From IMG/VR virus record IMGVR_UViG_3300031787_000092, positions 1 to 64,000 of that record: a DNA stretch of 64,000 nucleotides. One strand, 5' to 3'. Shown one piece after another: positions 2,546 through 64,000 of this stretch. The translations under genes and the position numbers were made by a program. The first letter of the stretch is position 1; each line of letters opens with the position of its first letter. The notes under the pieces are model-generated. The model was not told the DNA's origin, ran no database searches, and was given only the letters and a program-made list of their open reading frames with translations. Source of the stretch: a virus.

Positions 2546-3781
2546 ATGCCAGTAAAAAAATTTACACGATACACAAAAGGTCGAAATCAACAAGTTTTCG
2601 TACCTAGAGCTGTAGCTATTTCAGATGATGCAACACTTGCATTATTTATAGCTAACTCTCTAGTAGGAGAAATTGGAGTTTATGATGGTAATAATGCACG
2701 ACATATAGATGCAATTACTGCTAACGAGCAATTTTTTATTGTACAAAAAAGATCAGATGGTAGTATTCGTAAAACTACTCCTGAACTTTGGTCTACTGTA
2801 TCAGTAAGACGTAAGTCTTATGTAGCACCTATTAAAGCTGTAGGATCAATTGGATGGTCTGGAACAGTTGGTAACTTAAACGTTGCAACACCAGCAGCAG
2901 GACAAATTTATGAAATTGCTATCATTGAAACTACAGAAGGTAATCAACCTTTCCCTACTTGGAATTTTGAATATAGACTTGTAACTGGAGATACTCAAGT
3001 TACTGCTATTTCTCAATTAGCAAAGCAAGTAAATGATTTAACTTCTGTTCAATATAGAAATAATAAACCACTTGTTACTGCTAAAGTTAAAGTAAACGGT
3101 ACTTATGCTGCTATGACTTTAACTGGAACTAGTCCTACTCTTACAGCAACTAGAGGATCAAATATACTTACTTTAGGTGGTGGTAGTCCTGTATCAAGTG
3201 CAATAGTTGGAGATTTAATGTCTATTGATGCAGCAGCAGCACCTACAAACTTAGTTGGTGATGTTTATGTTGTAACAGCAGTATCAGCAGGTGTTTCAAT
3301 AACTTTAGATAGACCTTATCAAGGAGCAACTCAAACATTTACACAAGCAGAAGCTCAAGGTACTCGTATTAACAGAATTACCGCAGTTGTAACAGGAGGT
3401 CTTGAATTTACTGCAATCAATAATGATGAACATTTCAGAATTATTGATCGTCAAGGTCTTGCTAATGCAACTCAACAAAACATGACTGCTTATACAAAAG
3501 GTAATGGAGTTGGACAAAGCATTGCTGAACTTGAAAAAGAAGGTAATACTTATACTGGTTTAACTGCTGGTAATACTCAATTTGGTAACTCTGCTTTTGG
3601 TGTAGAAGATTTGTTTGCAGTAGAAACTGATACTTATGATACTTTCAATATCGAAGTAAATCAGTTTGTTAATCAAACTGGTGATTCTACTTCTGATAGA
3701 GCTAAAGAATTTATTACTATTGCAGCACCTAGATCAGCAGGTGGTTTAACTGCTTCACTAAACACATTGTTTGGAACATAG
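2546..3781 (+). CDS. Structural protein, beta-rich (411 aa)
   Basis: Starts with a basic MPVKKFTRYTKGR segment, then a long sequence rich in Gly, Ala, Thr, Val and Ser that predicts beta structure, with GTSPTLTATRGSN and SAGVSITLD-type strands. The composition is that of a capsid decoration, tail-tube or tail-barrel protein, and the less biased codon use suggests high expression. It is followed by tandem TAG stops and a strong terminator at 3807, so it closes the unit 490-3781. The exact virion position cannot be told from sequence; a head-auxiliary or tail-barrel ring protein are the two readings I would test first. Confidence 0.65.
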   Translation: MPVKKFTRYTKGRNQQVFVPRAVAISDDATLALFIANSLVGEIGVYDGNNARHIDAITANEQFFIVQKRSDGSIRKTTPELWSTVSVRRKSYVAPIKAVGSIGWSGTVGNLNVATPAAGQIYEIAIIETTEGNQPFPTWNFEYRLVTGDTQVTAISQLAKQVNDLTSVQYRNNKPLVTAKVKVNGTYAAMTLTGTSPTLTATRGSNILTLGGGSPVSSAIVGDLMSIDAAAAPTNLVGDVYVVTAVSAGVSITLDRPYQGATQTFTQAEAQGTRINRITAVVTGGLEFTAINNDEHFRIIDRQGLANATQQNMTAYTKGNGVGQSIAELEKEGNTYTGLTAGNTQFGNSAFGVEDLFAVETDTYDTFNIEVNQFVNQTGDSTSDRAKEFITIAAPRSAGGLTASLNTLFGT

Positions 3782-3806
3782 TAGTTAGTTTAAATATACA
3801 GGTCAG

Positions 3807-3837
3807 AAAAGGAGGAGAGGAAATTCTCCTCCTTTTT
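3807..3837 (+). terminator. Rho-independent terminator after the 490-3781 unit
   Basis: A perfect 12-bp stem (AAAAGGAGGAGA, 3807-3818, with TCTCCTCCTTTT, 3825-3836) has a 6-base loop and a T-rich tail. It lies between the structural protein ending at 3781 and the gene starting at 3855. Confidence 0.85.
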
Positions 3838-3854
3838 ACTTTAAAACTACTTAT

Positions 3855-38741: not shown

Positions 38742-39151
38742 TGAAAGAATCTATAATTAAATTTTTTACTAGCTTATTTGTTAATTATCCAGAAGGTATG
38801 TTTTTATATACTGGAGGAATAATTACAATAACTGTAATCAATTTAGTTTATAGAAAAGAATGGGATAGAGGAGCTAAAGGTAAAAACTTATTATGGGATA
38901 TGCCAGAACAAATGTTTGTCATATATGTAAGATGGGTATTACCTAATATGTTTGTAGCTTCCTATTCTCTTCCTCAAGTTGTAACAGTAACAGATTCACT
39001 TCTAGTCTTTGGATCAGGATTTGCATTATATGCTCTTACTGGAAGATGGGGATTAGAATGGCTAGAAAGACTTAGAACAGGTAAAAATGAAACTATTAAG
39101 TCAAGTGAAACAGTAACAATAGAAAAGAAAGATGAAACAGTTTCTAACTGA
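38741..39151 (+). CDS. Membrane protein, holin candidate (136 aa)
   Basis: Two or three membrane segments are visible: about residues 19-38 (GMFLYTGGIITITVINLVY), 57-75 and 80-102 (SLLVFGSGFALYALTG). A charged C-terminal tail of about 30 residues rich in Lys/Glu/Thr follows. Size, topology and position between the putative endolysin and spanin-like genes suit a holin. It is translationally coupled to the gene before it (TAATG) and overlaps the next by 20 nt. Confidence 0.5.
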   Translation: MKESIIKFFTSLFVNYPEGMFLYTGGIITITVINLVYRKEWDRGAKGKNLLWDMPEQMFVIYVRWVLPNMFVASYSLPQVVTVTDSLLVFGSGFALYALTGRWGLEWLERLRTGKNETIKSSETVTIEKKDETVSN

Positions 39152-39500
39152 AAATTTTAAATGGATACTACTAGTAGTTACTCTATTAGTAGTATCTAAT
39201 TTATTAACTGGTATAAGAGTTGATGGCTTATCAAAGAAAGATGATAGGATAATTAGAAACAAACTAGATAGTTTAAACTCAAGATATAAAGAGCTTGAGT
39301 TTTTACATTTAGTAGAAGTAGAGAAAAGACGGAAAATTTTTTTGGAAGATAGTCTACTAAAAGTAGAATATACTAAAAAATCTCAACAAGATAATATTCT
39401 AATAAAAAAGCAGCAATCTGCTATCAACAAATATAAGAATCTCACATCTAAAGTAGGTTTAGCAAAATTAGATTCAGCATACAATGCAGAAAATCATTAA
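39132..39500 (+). CDS. Inner-membrane spanin-like protein (122 aa)
   Basis: One N-terminal membrane anchor (FKWILLVVTLLVVSNLL) is followed by a long charged helical region with coiled-coil character, the layout of Rz-type i-spanins that span the periplasm. It overlaps the previous gene by 20 nt and the next, also exported, gene by 17 nt, as spanin pairs often do. Sequence similarity to known spanins is not claimed. Confidence 0.5.
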   Translation: MKQFLTENFKWILLVVTLLVVSNLLTGIRVDGLSKKDDRIIRNKLDSLNSRYKELEFLHLVEVEKRRKIFLEDSLLKVEYTKKSQQDNILIKKQQSAINKYKNLTSKVGLAKLDSAYNAENH

Positions 39501-41536: not shown

Positions 41537-42777
41537 ATTATAGGTTTACGTTTATTCTTTACTAAGAAACTATTAGCTTGAGAAAAATGAGCATTTCCTC
41601 CAAATGTATTAGGAAAATTAGGTTCAGTAGTACCAAATTGATTTGCACTATAAAGATCAGATGCAGGATGTTTTGCTTTTAATACAAGATGAATAAATGA
41701 AAACTTACTAAAATCAAATCCATCAACTTTAGATATTTTATCAAATACCTCTTGAAATAAAGCTTGAGCATCATTACCCCAAAGCATAAATACTTTAGGA
41801 TTCTCATCTTTGATTAACTCATATAGAATTATCTTTACAAATCTTTGCCAACCTAATCCTTCATGAGATTTAGTTTTATATCTTTCTACAGTAAGAATTG
41901 TATTAAGAAGTAAAACACCTTGCTCTGCCCAATCATCTAAACTTTCATCAAAATCTAAATGAAATCCTTTATACATGTCTCTTTCAACTTCTTTAAGAAT
42001 TACATCTAGAGATTTAGGAGTTTTCTTTACTGTTACTCCATTTTTTGTTTCAGTTCTAACTTTAAATCCAAAAGCTAACCCATTAGCTGATCCATCGACA
42101 TATGGATCTTGTCCTAGAACTACAACCTTTACTTGCTTAAAATGAGTAAGTTTTAAAGCTCTAAATACATTAGCTTCATCAGGATATACAATAGTTTCTG
42201 TTCTTCTATGTCTAATCCAGTTTCCTATTTTAGACATATATTCAGAGTTAATAGTATCTTTTAGTAATTCATACCAAGTATCTCCAAATAAATTCCTTCT
42301 TCTTTGTTCTGTTGGATCAATTAATATTCTTCTTTTATCCCAATAGATAATTGGTACATATATCTTCTTTTCTGTTCCAGAAAATTTAAATACTTGACCA
42401 AATTCTTCTGCTCTTACTTTAGGAATAACATAAGAATATTTTAGACTTTCATATATAATTAAATCAACTTGTTCAAATATTGTATAATTAATTGACCAAG
42501 CTTGAGTTTTTTGAAAGATATTTGCTTCATCTTCGTATTTTTTATAGTAGAGGAGATTTCTCTCCCCTACTAATATAAATCCTAAACAAATATCTTGTCT
42601 GGAATCTTTTTTTCTAAAGTATATTCTATCTTCTTCTCCTATAGAAAAAACACTTCCATCTTCATCAACAGCACTTTTAAGCTTCTTCAGCCTCTCCTTG
42701 TGGCTCTGCTTTAACTTTTTTAGGTTTGAAGGCTGTTTTGATAAGTCGTACTCCTGAAAGTTTTTTGTCATCTCCAT
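41530..42777 (-). CDS. Uracil-DNA glycosylase with N-terminal extension (415 aa)
   Basis: Contains the family 1 UDG water-activating loop at residues 222-226 (GQDPY, catalytic D224) in VKVVVLGQDPYVDGSANGLAFG, and a C-terminal KHPASDLYS in place of the usual HPSPLS loop. It removes uracil from DNA. The catalytic domain begins near residue 155; about 150 residues before it form an unrecognised domain (QDICLGFILVGERNLLYYKK and onward), making it much longer than the usual 220-250 aa. The only plausible ATG (42777, or 42771) lies 101 nt inside the preceding gene, so the N-terminus is uncertain. Confidence 0.8.
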   Translation of the reverse strand: MEMTKNFQEYDLSKQPSNLKKLKQSHKERLKKLKSAVDEDGSVFSIGEEDRIYFRKKDSRQDICLGFILVGERNLLYYKKYEDEANIFQKTQAWSINYTIFEQVDLIIYESLKYSYVIPKVRAEEFGQVFKFSGTEKKIYVPIIYWDKRRILIDPTEQRRRNLFGDTWYELLKDTINSEYMSKIGNWIRHRRTETIVYPDEANVFRALKLTHFKQVKVVVLGQDPYVDGSANGLAFGFKVRTETKNGVTVKKTPKSLDVILKEVERDMYKGFHLDFDESLDDWAEQGVLLLNTILTVERYKTKSHEGLGWQRFVKIILYELIKDENPKVFMLWGNDAQALFQEVFDKISKVDGFDFSKFSFIHLVLKAKHPASDLYSANQFGTTEPNFPNTFGGNAHFSQANSFLVKNKRKPIIW

Positions 42778-48532: not shown

Positions 48533-48730
48533 TTAAGTATATCTTTTATATTTTTCTTTTCCTGTTAATTTTAATTGCTGTCTAAAAGTAGGATGAATTT
48601 TAATAGCTTTTCGATAAAATGCTATAATCAGATTATCTATTCTTGTAAAATCACCTCTTTTATAAATATAGATATTATCAAATACATATCTATGTAACTT
48701 TTCTAGTATAATAGCTATGATTAGCTTCAT
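48533..48730 (-). CDS. Small basic hypothetical protein (65 aa)
   Basis: A strongly basic protein with a hydrophobic N-terminus (MKLIIAIILEKLHRY), possibly membrane-associated or nucleic-acid binding. It starts just after the terminator at 48738-48757 and lies 3 nt before the primase. No family recognised. Confidence 0.5.
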   Translation of the reverse strand: MKLIIAIILEKLHRYVFDNIYIYKRGDFTRIDNLIIAFYRKAIKIHPTFRQQLKLTGKEKYKRYT

Positions 48731-48737
48731 AAATAAA

Positions 48738-48757
48738 AGAGGAGGTTTCCCTCCTCT
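48738..48757 (-). terminator. Terminator after the 227-aa abundant-protein gene
   Basis: An 8-bp GC-rich stem (48738-48745 with 48750-48757; AGAGGAGG/CCTCCTCT) has a 4-base loop. On the minus strand it is followed by TTTTATTT. It separates 48764-49447 from the primase operon. Confidence 0.7.
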
Positions 48758-48763
48758 ATTTAA

Positions 48764-49447
48764 TTAAAATCCACTAGCATGTTCTGCTGGTGCAGAACTA
48801 AAGTCTCCTGTTGGAGCTTGTGCTCCAAATCCGTTAGTTCCAGTTCCTGCTGTAAATCCACCTCCAGCAGGTGCTTCTGCATCTGGTTGAATAGCAGATA
48901 ATACATACTTATCATATTGAGGATTAGTACTGAATTGCTTAGGATGATTTGCTGTACTGATAAATGGTGCAACTTTAGGAAGTGCAGAATATTTACCATT
49001 ATATACAACTTTCAATGCACATTCAATACCTTTAGCTTTTTGAGGTACACCTGTAGCATCTACTTGAAGTGCTGCACCTGTCATTGCAATATAATCATCC
49101 CACATCTTGTCAATATTTGCAAGACCTGAATCTGCAATTTTAATCTTCTCAAATGTAGCTTCATCAAGAAAAGCTCTAGTAATATGAGCAACTCTTGAAT
49201 GTGCTAACGTAATGTTTTTCTTAAAATTATCATCATCTAATGTCTTTCCTGCAATTACTCTATTAGGAGCAAACTCTCTATGAGCTAATTCTGCTCCTGT
49301 AGATTTTTGCTTAAAAGAGAATGTTACAGAACGATAAGATTTAGAATTTGGATCTTTATCTCTGCTTAGTTTCACTAATTCACAACCTTCTACTCTTTCA
49401 GCAGGTTTAATTACAGAAATATCAGATACTTTACTATTATCAAACAT
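48764..49447 (-). CDS. Abundant DNA-binding protein candidate with Gly-rich tail (227 aa)
   Basis: Its codon use is richer in GC-ending codons than its neighbours, and it has terminators on both sides (49477 upstream, 48738 downstream), so it is probably strongly and separately expressed. The body looks alpha/beta. The last 40 residues are a Gly/Ala/Phe-rich disordered tail (GGGFTAGTGTNGFGA and onward) ending in Gly-Phe, which recalls single-stranded DNA-binding protein tails that recruit partners. It sits between the primase and the Sak4-like ATPase. SSB function is inference; no OB-fold match was established. Confidence 0.5.
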   Translation of the reverse strand: MFDNSKVSDISVIKPAERVEGCELVKLSRDKDPNSKSYRSVTFSFKQKSTGAELAHREFAPNRVIAGKTLDDDNFKKNITLAHSRVAHITRAFLDEATFEKIKIADSGLANIDKMWDDYIAMTGAALQVDATGVPQKAKGIECALKVVYNGKYSALPKVAPFISTANHPKQFSTNPQYDKYVLSAIQPDAEAPAGGGFTAGTGTNGFGAQAPTGDFSSAPAEHASGF

Positions 49448-59800: not shown

Positions 59801-60060
59801 AATGTTTTAATTTCTTTAATTTTTTCTTCATCTGTTTGTTGATTTATCCAGTCTGCTACAAGTTGCCAAGATGATGATTCATATCGTGTATGTCTAAGAG
59901 TTTCTTCTCCACAACTACAACCTGGGTCATGTTTAACTGTATGTTCATCAATAAATAGAAACTTAATAGGATAGTCACATGTAGCACAATGATCTGCTGT
60001 CCAACTTGTGATCTTATTTCGATAAGCATATTCTATTAGTTGCACTGCCGTTATCTTCAT
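59788..60060 (-). CDS. Small zinc-binding protein (90 aa)
   Basis: Two Cys pairs, CATC (near residues 26-29) and CSC (near residue 48), flank a beta hairpin (YPIKFLFIDEHTVKHDPG), suggesting a zinc ribbon. It overlaps the DNA polymerase start codon region by 4 nt, so it may be a replication accessory protein. Similar short Cys proteins occur next to polymerase genes in related phages as I recall them. Confidence 0.55.
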   Translation of the reverse strand: MKITAVQLIEYAYRNKITSWTADHCATCDYPIKFLFIDEHTVKHDPGCSCGEETLRHTRYESSSWQLVADWINQQTDEEKIKEIKTFWKI

Positions 60061-62030
60061 ATAAATTTTTCTTGTATGTTAAAATCCTTCATATTATTTA
60101 TTATACTATATACTTTGCTTATATAATAATCATAATTTATATTATAATTATCAGAATCAAAGTATCTATTAAATAGTGTAACATGATAACCTGCTTCTAC
60201 TTGATGTTCTCTAACTCCTATATCTAAGTTACCAAATATGTCGTATTGCATCTTTGGTTTCTTTTTAGGATTAGGTTTCATACGTTTTAATAGAATATCT
60301 TTACTATTAGATATATAGTATCTACAAGTTTTCTGTTGTTTAGTATAATCTAATCCATTTAAAGTATATAAGCTCATTGTGCTATCAGCTCGAACTGCAC
60401 AACAAAAGTCAAATATATCTTTATGGGCTCTTATATACTCCTCAGGTAGAATATTATCTACATAATAAGCTTTAAGAGCTAAAGGAACTATTCTTCTACT
60501 TTTGTTTTTATGTAATAGCTTATCTATCTCAAAATCACCTTTATATTTTAATGATCCATCTAACTTAACAGCTAAATAATCATTAACACTAGCTTGAATA
60601 AGAGATTTATAATCAGCAAATTCTAATTTACCATAAACAGTAGAATTAGTCTTTACTTCCCATTCTTTACATATCTTATTATACAGTTCTTCTTTAGATT
60701 TATCAAATAAAGATACTATACCATCAGTATTACTAGAAACAACAGATATTCCATTAAGCTCTAGATCTTCTATCAACATTAAGATTTCTAATTGACAACC
60801 AATAGTTACAGAATACATAATTTCCATATCATATTGCCAATTAGTAACTTCTCCTAACTTACCATAACCGCCACCGTTATTAGCTAATTTATAAGCTTCA
60901 CTCCAAGATGCAGCAGATTTATTAGTTTTAGCTAATGGTTTTAGTTTTGATCTCTCATTAATATTATTCTTTATTTGCTCATTCCAGATAGGTGATAAGT
61001 GTTTAGGATATAATCCTCTTTTAACTATTGCAGATGGATATTGTCCACCTACATCTGCATCACGTAATATCTGATTTGGTTTAATTACTATTTTTCTAAA
61101 GCTTTCATTTGAATGTATACCACCTAAACCCATATTATGAGTGCTATGTCCTATAGTTACTGATTCTTTAAAAGTATCATTACCTATATTAATAGAAGTA
61201 GCTTTAATACGATTCAGAAGATTAGTTAATATCTCTGTTTTAAATGTAATATAAGGAGGAATAGTGTTTTTAAGATAGATTAATTGTTGATAAGCTTCTC
61301 GTTTATCATGATATAGTTCATCTTTAGATTTACCTGTAGCTTTTGTATAATTTATAAAGTTAAATTGTTCACCTATCTTTACATCATTCCAATTTATTAC
61401 TGATTTACCTATTAATTTACCAATATCTTTCCTTAATTGTATCTGATCTTTACCTTTATATTCAGAGTTTTCAGTTAATCCTTTAGTTATATTATAAAAG
61501 TTTTCTGTAGAATCTACATCATTATGACAATAATCTATTAGATTAGCCAATTCTTCTTGAGTAGATATACCTACATTATGATCTACATTCATTTCAACTA
61601 AATTCTTCCAATTCATACCAAATTGAAGCCATTTCAAAGAAGTTCTCTTTGCCTCATTATCGTAATGATTAATGAGAAAGGGATCGCATTGAGGTATATA
61701 AAGCTTCCACTCTGGAAAATCTAAAAACTGCCTGTTATTTGACTTCTCTATAACTTGGGTGGCATACTGGTGTATTTCATAAGTAATTTGATCTGTGGGC
61801 AAAAGAATCAGTCTCTTAACATTATCTATAATCCATTGCTGAACCTGTGCGTCAAATTTTACGCAATTATAACCTATTTCACCTTTGACATTAGACAAGA
61901 AGTTGACATAGGCTAACAGGTCGTTTCTTTCTTTATAAATGACAAAATCATACCATTGATTTGTGTCTTTAACCTTAAAACTTGATAGAAAACAGTTTTT
62001 TAAAGTTTCTTTATCGTAAAAAACATACAT
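60057..62030 (-). CDS. Family B DNA polymerase with 3'-5' exonuclease (657 aa)
   Basis: The exonuclease domain shows Exo I D6-x-E8, an Exo II-like GYNCVKFD near residue 54, and Exo III YCHNDVD near residue 170. The polymerase core has motif A D324-A-D326-V-G-G-Q-Y-P-S, motif B KLANNGGGYG near residue 383 and motif C SNTDG (D436). This is the replicative polymerase, smaller than T4 gp43 but complete. It starts after a leader with TTTAAACTAAA and heads the replication block. The 69-base gap upstream is shared with a divergent + strand unit. Confidence 0.85.
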   Translation of the reverse strand: MYVFYDKETLKNCFLSSFKVKDTNQWYDFVIYKERNDLLAYVNFLSNVKGEIGYNCVKFDAQVQQWIIDNVKRLILLPTDQITYEIHQYATQVIEKSNNRQFLDFPEWKLYIPQCDPFLINHYDNEAKRTSLKWLQFGMNWKNLVEMNVDHNVGISTQEELANLIDYCHNDVDSTENFYNITKGLTENSEYKGKDQIQLRKDIGKLIGKSVINWNDVKIGEQFNFINYTKATGKSKDELYHDKREAYQQLIYLKNTIPPYITFKTEILTNLLNRIKATSINIGNDTFKESVTIGHSTHNMGLGGIHSNESFRKIVIKPNQILRDADVGGQYPSAIVKRGLYPKHLSPIWNEQIKNNINERSKLKPLAKTNKSAASWSEAYKLANNGGGYGKLGEVTNWQYDMEIMYSVTIGCQLEILMLIEDLELNGISVVSSNTDGIVSLFDKSKEELYNKICKEWEVKTNSTVYGKLEFADYKSLIQASVNDYLAVKLDGSLKYKGDFEIDKLLHKNKSRRIVPLALKAYYVDNILPEEYIRAHKDIFDFCCAVRADSTMSLYTLNGLDYTKQQKTCRYYISNSKDILLKRMKPNPKKKPKMQYDIFGNLDIGVREHQVEAGYHVTLFNRYFDSDNYNINYDYYISKVYSIINNMKDFNIQEKFI

Positions 62031-62070: not shown

Positions 62071-62078
62071 TATCTTTG
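62071..62078 (+). promoter_or_regulatory. Bacteroidota promoter -7 element for opposite-strand unit
   Basis: TATCTTTG matches the TAnnTTTG -7 consensus and is followed by a purine/A-rich leader up to the ATG at 62100. A convincing TTTG -33 element was not seen at the usual distance. Its placement in a divergent gap with a terminator-like hairpin 150 bases downstream makes it more convincing than a random match. Confidence 0.4.
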
Positions 62079-62099
62079 TGTCAACAAAACAACAATAAT

Positions 62100-62255
62100 A
62101 TGAAAAACGGACAAACACCTATCGAACAGCCAAAATTAGCTGTATTAGGCTCCGTAAATGAAACAAAGCCTAATAAAACTAAAGGTCTTGAGCAAATTCA
62201 AGATGCTTTGCAATTTATATCTAAAGGATTAATCAAGAATATTTACTTGTTCTAA
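62100..62255 (+). CDS. Small opposite-strand ORF / possible structured RNA (51 aa)
   Basis: A 51-codon ORF (MKNGQTPIEQPKLAVLG start, KGLIKNIYLF end) runs against all surrounding genes. The coding DNA is also rich in inverted repeats: a 9-bp stem at 62143-62151/62167-62175, a 6-bp stem at 62186-62191/62198-62203, and a 10-bp stem spanning the stop codon. A promoter-like TATCTTTG precedes it and a T-tract follows. It may be a small early protein, a non-coding RNA, or both. Its 3' end overlaps the convergent 115-aa gene by 27 nt, so antisense control of that gene is possible. No homologous family recognised. Confidence 0.45.
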   Translation: MKNGQTPIEQPKLAVLGSVNETKPNKTKGLEQIQDALQFISKGLIKNIYLF

Positions 62256-62270
62256 TCCTTTATAATTTTT
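62222..62270 (+). terminator. Terminator-like hairpin of the opposite-strand unit
   Basis: TAAAGGATTA (62222-62231) pairs with TAATCCTTTA (62253-62262). An inner CAAG/CTTG stem is present, and ATAATTTTT follows on the + strand. The minus strand lacks a T-tract after the stem, so termination would favour the + direction. Confidence 0.5.
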
Positions 62271-62576
62271 CATAAGCGGTTGTCTGATTGCTAAAACTGG
62301 TACAACCGCTTTTGTTTTTCTAATGTTACAGAAATAATTTCCCCATTTCTTTGAAGGATGAGCTTCATCTGGAAAACTTAATTCAATCTTTCTTAATTTT
62401 GCTACTTCTTCTAGTTGATCACGTTTATCTGAAAAGAATCCAGATAGTTCATGATATTTAAATTCTTTGATACAAGCATGAGTATGTGCATATTGCAGAT
62501 GTTTTTCATCCATCTGCATCATGTCTAATTCTACTCCATTTATATCTTTCCATATATAATTATTAGTTGGTGTCAT
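62229..62576 (-). CDS. Phage-conserved hypothetical protein (115 aa)
   Basis: The N-terminal segment IWKDINGVELDMMQMDEKHLQYA fits a pattern I know from many phage proteins (W-x-x-x-x-G-x5-10-M-D-x-x-H-L-x-x-A), whose function is unsettled. The C-terminal half is basic. It has a terminator 40 bases upstream that ends the previous gene, and it converges with the + strand ORF at 62100-62255. Confidence 0.55.
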   Translation of the reverse strand: MTPTNNYIWKDINGVELDMMQMDEKHLQYAHTHACIKEFKYHELSGFFSDKRDQLEEVAKLRKIELSFPDEAHPSKKWGNYFCNIRKTKAVVPVLAIRQPLMKNYKGLEQVNILD

Positions 62577-63483: not shown

Positions 63484-63690
63484 ATGACCTACAACTTATT
63501 GTCTTTAATCGCTTGTACTCCTACTCCCACTCCTACTCCTACTCCCACTCCAACTCCCACTCCTACTCCCACTCCTACTCCCACTCCTACTCCTACTCCC
63601 ACTCCAACTCCCACTCCTACTCCCACTCCTACTCCCACTCCAACTCCCACTCCCACTCCAACTCCCACTCCTACTATTTTCGTATCCTAA
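63484..63690 (+). CDS. Pro-Thr repeat ORF (68 aa)
   Basis: The frame opens [11 protein letters not shown] and continues as 26 Pro-Thr pairs, ending IFVS. All 27 Thr codons are ACT, and the only variation is at the third base of the Pro codons (12 CCC, 10 CCT, 4 CCA), so the protein sequence is exactly constant in this frame alone. LIAC before the repeats fits a lipobox, but the preceding segment is short and lacks a positive charge. No promoter is evident and both neighbours are on the other strand. It could be a surface or cell-wall-spanning peptide, or a repeat that happens to be open. Confidence 0.4.
63517..63675. repeat. CCNACT hexamer tandem array
   Basis: Twenty-six CCNACT units (N = C, T or A, never G) follow an initial ACT, 159 bp in all. 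Units 1-20 follow a 9-unit (54-bp) higher-order period; for example 63532-63585 is identical to 63586-63639. The complementary strand is GGNAGT-repetitive and could form two-tetrad G-quadruplexes. Confidence 0.9.
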
Positions 63691-63710
63691 TCTTAATAAT
63701 GCAGCATTCA

Positions 63711-64000
63711 TTATTTTCTAGTTTTAGGTAAATCAGTTAGCCATTCAGTTGCATCAATTATACCACCTCTACCTACAATAACATCTCTTTGAAACATTTC
63801 AACTTCATTAAGTTTTCCATCTTTAAGAGCATCTGTAAATAAACCTGTATCAGCAACCCAACAAGCATCTGATAATAATAATTCTTTATCAGTTACTTTT
63901 TTAAGTTTACCTAATTGAATCATTGTAACTGTTCTAATTAGATAATTTTTACCGATTTCCCATAATGATTCTTCTCCATTAAGTTCAATTACTTTTGATA
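63711..64000 (-). CDS. Conserved hypothetical protein (partial, 5' end outside window)
   Basis: The minus frame is open to the window edge (first full codon at 63998), so the ATG at 63923 is probably internal. The sequence (LWEIGKNYLIRTVTMIQLGK, later LLSDACWVADTGLFTDAL) belongs to a small family I have seen in Bacteroidota genomes and their phages, where a G-K-x-Y-L-I/V-R-T-V-T core is followed by DASWVAET-like strands. Function unknown; a beta-barrel fold is likely. It reads toward the CCNACT array. Confidence 0.6.
   Translation of the reverse strand, partial: SKVIELNGEESLWEIGKNYLIRTVTMIQLGKLKKVTDKELLLSDACWVADTGLFTDALKDGKLNEVEMFQRDVIVGRGGIIDATEWLTDLPKTRK

What the first reader, a model, noticed from the sequence alone, without database searches (positions are those of the whole stretch)
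62071..62270. Opposite-strand mini-unit with promoter element, hairpins and terminator next to the DNA polymerase gene
In 200 bases there is a TATCTTTG promoter-type element, an A-rich leader, a 51-codon ORF, three inverted repeats (9 bp at 62143/62167, 6 bp at 62186/62198, 10 bp at 62222/62253) and a T-tract. It runs against the whole replication block and overlaps the end of the 115-aa gene. The density of stems is unusual for coding DNA here and suggests a structured small RNA, a small early protein, or a dual-function transcript.
Basis: partly seen in the sequence, partly recalled or inferred. Interest (0 to 1): 0.68.

Follow-up and report, generated by a model that had tools for sequence, protein, structure and literature searches.

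The report
Small opposite-strand phage gene unit
Next to its DNA polymerase gene, this probable phage of Bacteroidota-type bacteria carries a tiny self-contained unit on the opposite strand (host-type promoter element, 51-residue reading frame, terminator) that looks like a small accessory gene, with more RNA structure than such a gene needs and no known relatives.

Summary
This combination is unique among 302 ATG-ORFs of at least 40 aa in the genome; promoter plus leader together never occurred in 20 simulated genomes. The stems exceed chance: fold z is about -5.5 to -6.4 on the + strand, and the fold is stronger than in synonymously permuted versions (0.25% as strong). The minus strand folds at least as well, so folding does not say which strand uses the structure. 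No homologue of the ORF, the RNA or the 115-aa neighbour was found in phages, IMG/VR, GTDB genomes, Rfam or protein-family libraries. The closest relatives (PolB at most 46% identical) lack the unit, so covariation and frame conservation could not be tested. Most likely it is a moron-like ORFan: an autonomous small-protein gene read by host RNA polymerase. A dual-function or antisense RNA is possible but unproven. Interest is modest.

The parts
62071..62078 (+). TATCTTTG, match to the Bacteroidota primary-sigma -7 element TAnnTTTG; -33 element weak (TTTT where TTTG is expected)
   Evidence: consensus from PMC7366714
62079..62099 (+). A-rich leader with A at -3, -6, -12 and -13 (Bacteroidota Kozak-like context); transcription start inferred near 62084
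   Evidence: PMC6847099; a similar promoter-leader stretch precedes an unrelated small ORF in L088
62100..62255 (+). 51-codon ORF MKNGQTPIEQPKLAVLGSVNETKPNKTKGLEQIQDALQFISKGLIKNIYLF, an ORFan
   Evidence: codon score inconclusive; one predicted C-terminal helix at low confidence
62186..62203 (+). hairpin 2, 6-bp core TCTTGA/TCAAGA
62222..62262 (+). hairpin 3, 10-bp perfect arms, spanning the stop codons of both the ORF and the 115-aa gene
62274..62319 (+). intrinsic terminator AAGCGGTTGT...ACAACCGCTT + TTGTTTTT, inside the 3' end of the 115-aa gene
   Evidence: -15.3 kcal/mol; the same stem with a T-run follows a stop codon in two IMG/VR phage contigs
62229..62576 (-). convergent 115-aa gene of unknown function, overlapped by the unit
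60057..62030 (-). family B-type DNA polymerase gene, divergent from the unit

Best explanation
It is a moron-like autonomous transcription unit: a small accessory gene lodged between two replication genes and pointing the other way. Host RNA polymerase with the primary Bacteroidota sigma factor would start near 62084 from TATCTTTG. Ribosomes would start at the ATG at 62100 through the A-rich, Kozak-like leader. The transcript would end at the intrinsic terminator at 62274-62319. The product is a 51-aa ORFan protein with a flexible N-terminal half and a C-terminal helix, most simply a small modulator of host or phage processes made independently of the phage's own transcription programme. Shown: the sequence elements, the rarity of their combination, the excess structure, the absence of homologues in the collections searched. 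Inferred: transcription, translation, early timing, protein function, acquisition as an insert.
For: Only this one of 302 ATG-ORFs of at least 40 aa has TAnnTTTG at 15-40 nt, A at all four leader positions and a terminator within 120 nt; promoter plus leader occurred in none of 20 simulated genomes. Terminator polarity is +, and the same stem is a terminator in other phage contigs. The - strand has no ORF longer than 23 aa in the gap. The start region is as open as for other genes when folded locally. The ORF has atypical GC3 (0.27 against a mean of 0.11; 4% of gene pieces as high), as foreign genes often do. The genes next to polB in the closest relatives are different and the unit is absent.
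Against: The codon score does not separate the ORF from non-coding: 10th percentile of gene pieces, exceeded by 36% of out-of-frame runs. No homologue, so no proof of selection on the frame. In the full-length fold the start codon is often paired (mean probability 0.69). The structure exceeds what the peptide needs, which a plain small gene does not explain. The criteria were chosen after seeing the sequence.
Confidence: 0.58

Rival explanations
1. The unit makes a structured small RNA, alone or with the peptide (dual function). Its hairpins act in trans, or its 3' part pairs with the 3' end of the 115-aa mRNA and with read-through transcripts into polB as a cis-antisense regulator.
For: Fold z -5.5 to -6.4. 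The fold exceeds synonymous permutations (0.25% as strong). A promoter element and a terminator, features typical of canonical sRNAs (PMC7366714), bracket about 236 nt. The last ~90 nt are complementary to the 115-aa gene.
Against: No Rfam match. The opposite strand folds at least as well, so the signal is palindromic content rather than strand-specific RNA. A full ORF with a good start context is present. No covariation data are possible.
Confidence: 0.25
2. The structured element belongs to the minus strand or to the DNA itself: a structured leader of polB or an end of the 115-aa transcript, or a palindrome cluster serving replication. The + ORF would then be fortuitous.
For: The - strand window is first of 3188 in GC-corrected energy; z -7.6 over 62078-62325. 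It fills the gap between the 115-aa gene and polB. A - strand hairpin at 62154-62108 is followed by TTTTTCATATT.
Against: Promoter, leader and the canonical terminator all have + polarity. Much of the - strand's extra stability comes with its composition (shuffle mean -43.8 against -36.8); with the shorter window the - strand is not the stronger by z.
Confidence: 0.12
3. Nothing functional: chance promoter, ORF and stems in a 28% GC genome.
For: TAnnTTTG occurs 56 times per strand in the window; low-GC genomes have random antisense promoters (PMC7366714).
Against: The conjunction is not reproduced in simulated genomes, and structure is in the top 1% or so of windows.
Confidence: 0.05

Closest known systems
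Phage morons, e.g. pid of phage P22 (PMC3573128)
   Same: Small ORFan gene transcribed against its neighbours, isolated with its own promoter and terminator, inside a conserved gene block
   Different: Here in the replication block of a Bacteroidota-type phage; insertion relative to close relatives could not be shown; the product is untested; unusually strong RNA structure; terminator embedded in the neighbouring gene
Cis-antisense and intergenic sRNAs of Bacteroides (PMC7366714)
   Same: TAnnTTTG promoter element, about 100-250 nt, intrinsic terminator, partly antisense to a gene
   Different: Contains a complete ORF with translation context; no expression evidence; no sequence relation
Type I toxin-antitoxin loci (architecture only, from general knowledge)
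   Same: ORF under 60 aa in a structured transcript with possible antisense overlap
   Different: The peptide is hydrophilic over most of its length with no obvious membrane segment, and no dedicated antitoxin RNA was identified

Membership tests
Phage moron | Own promoter | tested here: met
   TATCTTTG 21 nt before the ATG; consensus only, not transcription
Phage moron | Own terminator | tested here: met
   Intrinsic terminator 62274-62319 on +
Phage moron | Absent at the same site in close relatives (insertion) | tested here: inconclusive
   Absent next to polB in relatives with 39-46% PolB identity, but their neighbouring genes differ too; no close relative available
Phage moron | Atypical base composition | tested here: inconclusive
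   GC 0.314 against 0.283; GC3 0.27 against 0.11, reached by 4% of gene pieces
Structured or dual-function small RNA | Stable structure beyond composition and beyond the encoded peptide | tested here: met
   but met on both strands
Structured or dual-function small RNA | Compensatory base changes in relatives | not testable with these tools
   No homologues found
Structured or dual-function small RNA | Match to a described RNA family | tested here: not met
   Rfam; the weak L20-leader hit is only the terminator
Protein-coding gene | Codon usage typical of the genome | tested here: inconclusive
   10th percentile of gene pieces; 36% of out-of-frame runs score higher
Protein-coding gene | Reading frame conserved in homologues | not testable with these tools
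   No homologues found

The most novel reading that the evidence does not exclude
A dual-function phage transcript in which the same ~236 nt encode a 51-aa protein and a structured, partly antisense RNA that controls the neighbouring replication genes, with codons chosen for structure as well as for protein.
Probability: 0.12. Interest if true: 0.6.

Novelty: new member of a known kind. Interest (0 to 1): 0.3.

Why it matters
Small opposite-strand units like this are easily missed by gene callers. If expressed, it would be a compact host-readable cargo gene in a phage lineage with almost no characterised members. Its excess structure would also make it a testable case of protein coding and RNA structure sharing the same bases. 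As it stands it is a well-formed but ordinary small-gene candidate.

Tried and rejected
Rfam: no match for the unit. Close relatives for covariation: PolB alignments against IMG/VR gave at best 46% PolB identity; searches with the ORF, the 115-aa protein and a promoter-leader pattern gave no homologue; GTDB contigs with the PolB alignment gave nothing. Opposite-strand unit upstream of polB in L010, L014 and L092-L094: none. Another copy in this genome: only chance matches of up to 17 nt. DNA matches to other phage contigs: only short AT-rich ones; the best (38 nt, 84%, L071) covers the last bases of the 115-aa gene and the ATGAAAAAT start of another gene, taken as chance. The MKN and KGLEQ resemblance between the ORF and the tail of the 115-aa protein follows from the inverted repeats and was not taken as homology. 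AlphaFold of the ORF alone: one helix, pLDDT 68.6, pTM 0.29, too weak for a fold search. A genome-wide z-score scan timed out and was replaced by 300 random windows. tRNA, retron and type III toxin-antitoxin readings were dropped: no tRNA in the window, no reverse transcriptase among the gene families searched, and no tandem repeat in the unit.

Full report
Setting. The window is bases 1-64000 of a 67,920-bp virus record. Structural genes run on the + strand, replication genes on the - strand from about 40 kb on. The 657-aa polymerase (60057-62030, -) matches PHROG 1252, DNA polymerase. Its best-listed annotated phage relative is Maribacter phage Panino at 32.5%, and the best IMG/VR contigs are 43-46%. 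A Bacteroidota host is inferred from such relatives and from the promoter and leader style. polB is preceded by a 198-bp gap with no - strand ORF longer than 23 aa, then by the 115-aa gene (62229-62576, -), for which no relative was found beyond one marginal PHROG hit of unknown function.

The observation. All listed elements exist at the stated places. Downstream of its right boundary a 10-bp stem AAGCGGTTGT/ACAACCGCTT followed by TTGTTTTT forms a canonical + strand intrinsic terminator; the simple scanner overlooked it because the loop is long. The same stem with a T-run directly follows a stop codon in two IMG/VR contigs.

Is the unit more than chance? TAnnTTTG alone is not: it occurs 56 times per strand in the window. 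The combination is rare. Among 302 ATG-initiated ORFs of at least 40 codons (nested starts counted) only this one has the -7 element at 15-40 nt, A at -3, -6, -12 and -13, and a terminator within 120 nt. First-order Markov genomes of the same size gave 1.1 ORFs each with the -7 element, and none in 20 with both promoter and leader. [quoted passage not shown] johnsoniae, so its weakness here is no strong objection. The leader positions are from PMC6847099. The criteria were set after seeing the sequence, so this is strong support and not a formal probability.

Is the structure more than chance? Yes. For 62078-62325 the + strand gives z -5.5 and -5.6, the - strand -7.6. A 240-nt window gives -6.4 and -5.8, where 300 random windows have mean -0.9, sd 1.3 and 1st percentile -5.0. 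Permuting synonymous codons while keeping peptide and flanks weakens the + fold from -59.4 to a mean of -48.0 and the - fold from -70.4 to -54.6, with 0.25% of permutations as strong in either case. Palindromes fold on both strands, so this shows inverted-repeat content beyond what the peptide needs, not which strand uses it.

Is the ORF coding? Composition does not decide. Its codon score is at the 10th percentile of gene pieces and is exceeded by 36% of out-of-frame runs; neighbouring genes score similarly (115-aa gene 0.18, 90-aa gene 0.09, ORF 0.14). GC3 is high, 0.27 against a mean of 0.11. Folded locally, the start region is as open as for other genes, but in the full-length fold the start codon is often paired (0.69). 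A single-sequence model has one helix, residues 28-50, at low confidence. No family or homologue was found.

Comparative evidence. Well over 100 PolB-bearing contigs were fetched. Their flanks hold no protein homologue of the ORF or the 115-aa gene and only short AT-rich DNA matches to the unit. In the closest relatives the genes directly upstream of polB differ and lie on the polB strand. Records very near the window may have been left out of the collections, so absence is not proof.

Interpretation. The simplest account is a moron-like small gene: transcriptionally isolated, opposite in direction, with its own promoter and terminator, orphan in sequence and slightly atypical in composition. 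P22 pid, an 86-aa ORFan transcribed against its neighbours (PMC3573128), is the closest analogue in kind; PMC2147016 describes morons as often carrying their own promoters and terminators. The insertion criterion could not be tested, so it works like a moron but membership is not proven. A regulatory or dual-function RNA remains possible because of the structure at synonymous sites, and the geometry makes the last ~90 nt antisense to the 115-aa gene, but neither effect has specific support. Transcription and translation are inferred throughout.

Noticed in passing
L002:9340-9729, minus strand (record 67339-67728; outside the window): The phage encodes a tmRNA (Rfam RF00023, 75.6 bits, E 1.4e-28), not called by ARAGORN; Maribacter phage Panino also has an annotated tmRNA.
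   Followed up: partly
Upstream of genes at 490, 11983, 38256 (+) and 50126, 62030 (-): A shared leader motif TAAACTAAA / TTTAAACT lies 10-18 nt before the ATG of genes that mostly follow an intergenic gap, perhaps a phage-specific promoter or translation signal; the mini-unit's leader differs from it.
   Followed up: partly
63484-63711: A long short-unit repeat tract encodes Pro-Thr repeats (+) or Gly-Val / Ser-Gly repeats (-), depending on frame.
   Followed up: no
39121-39360 (+), 42506-42745 (-), 48681-48920, 3601-3840 (+): Other windows fold about as strongly as the target (z about -5.8 to -7.6). Those at 3601 and 48681 contain intergenic terminators with GGAGGAG-type stems.
   Followed up: no
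L002:8183-8634 (record 66182-66633; outside the window): A stretch of about 450 bp without a convincing ORF, ending in a + strand terminator-like hairpin (record 66597-66643); possibly another non-coding unit.
   Followed up: no
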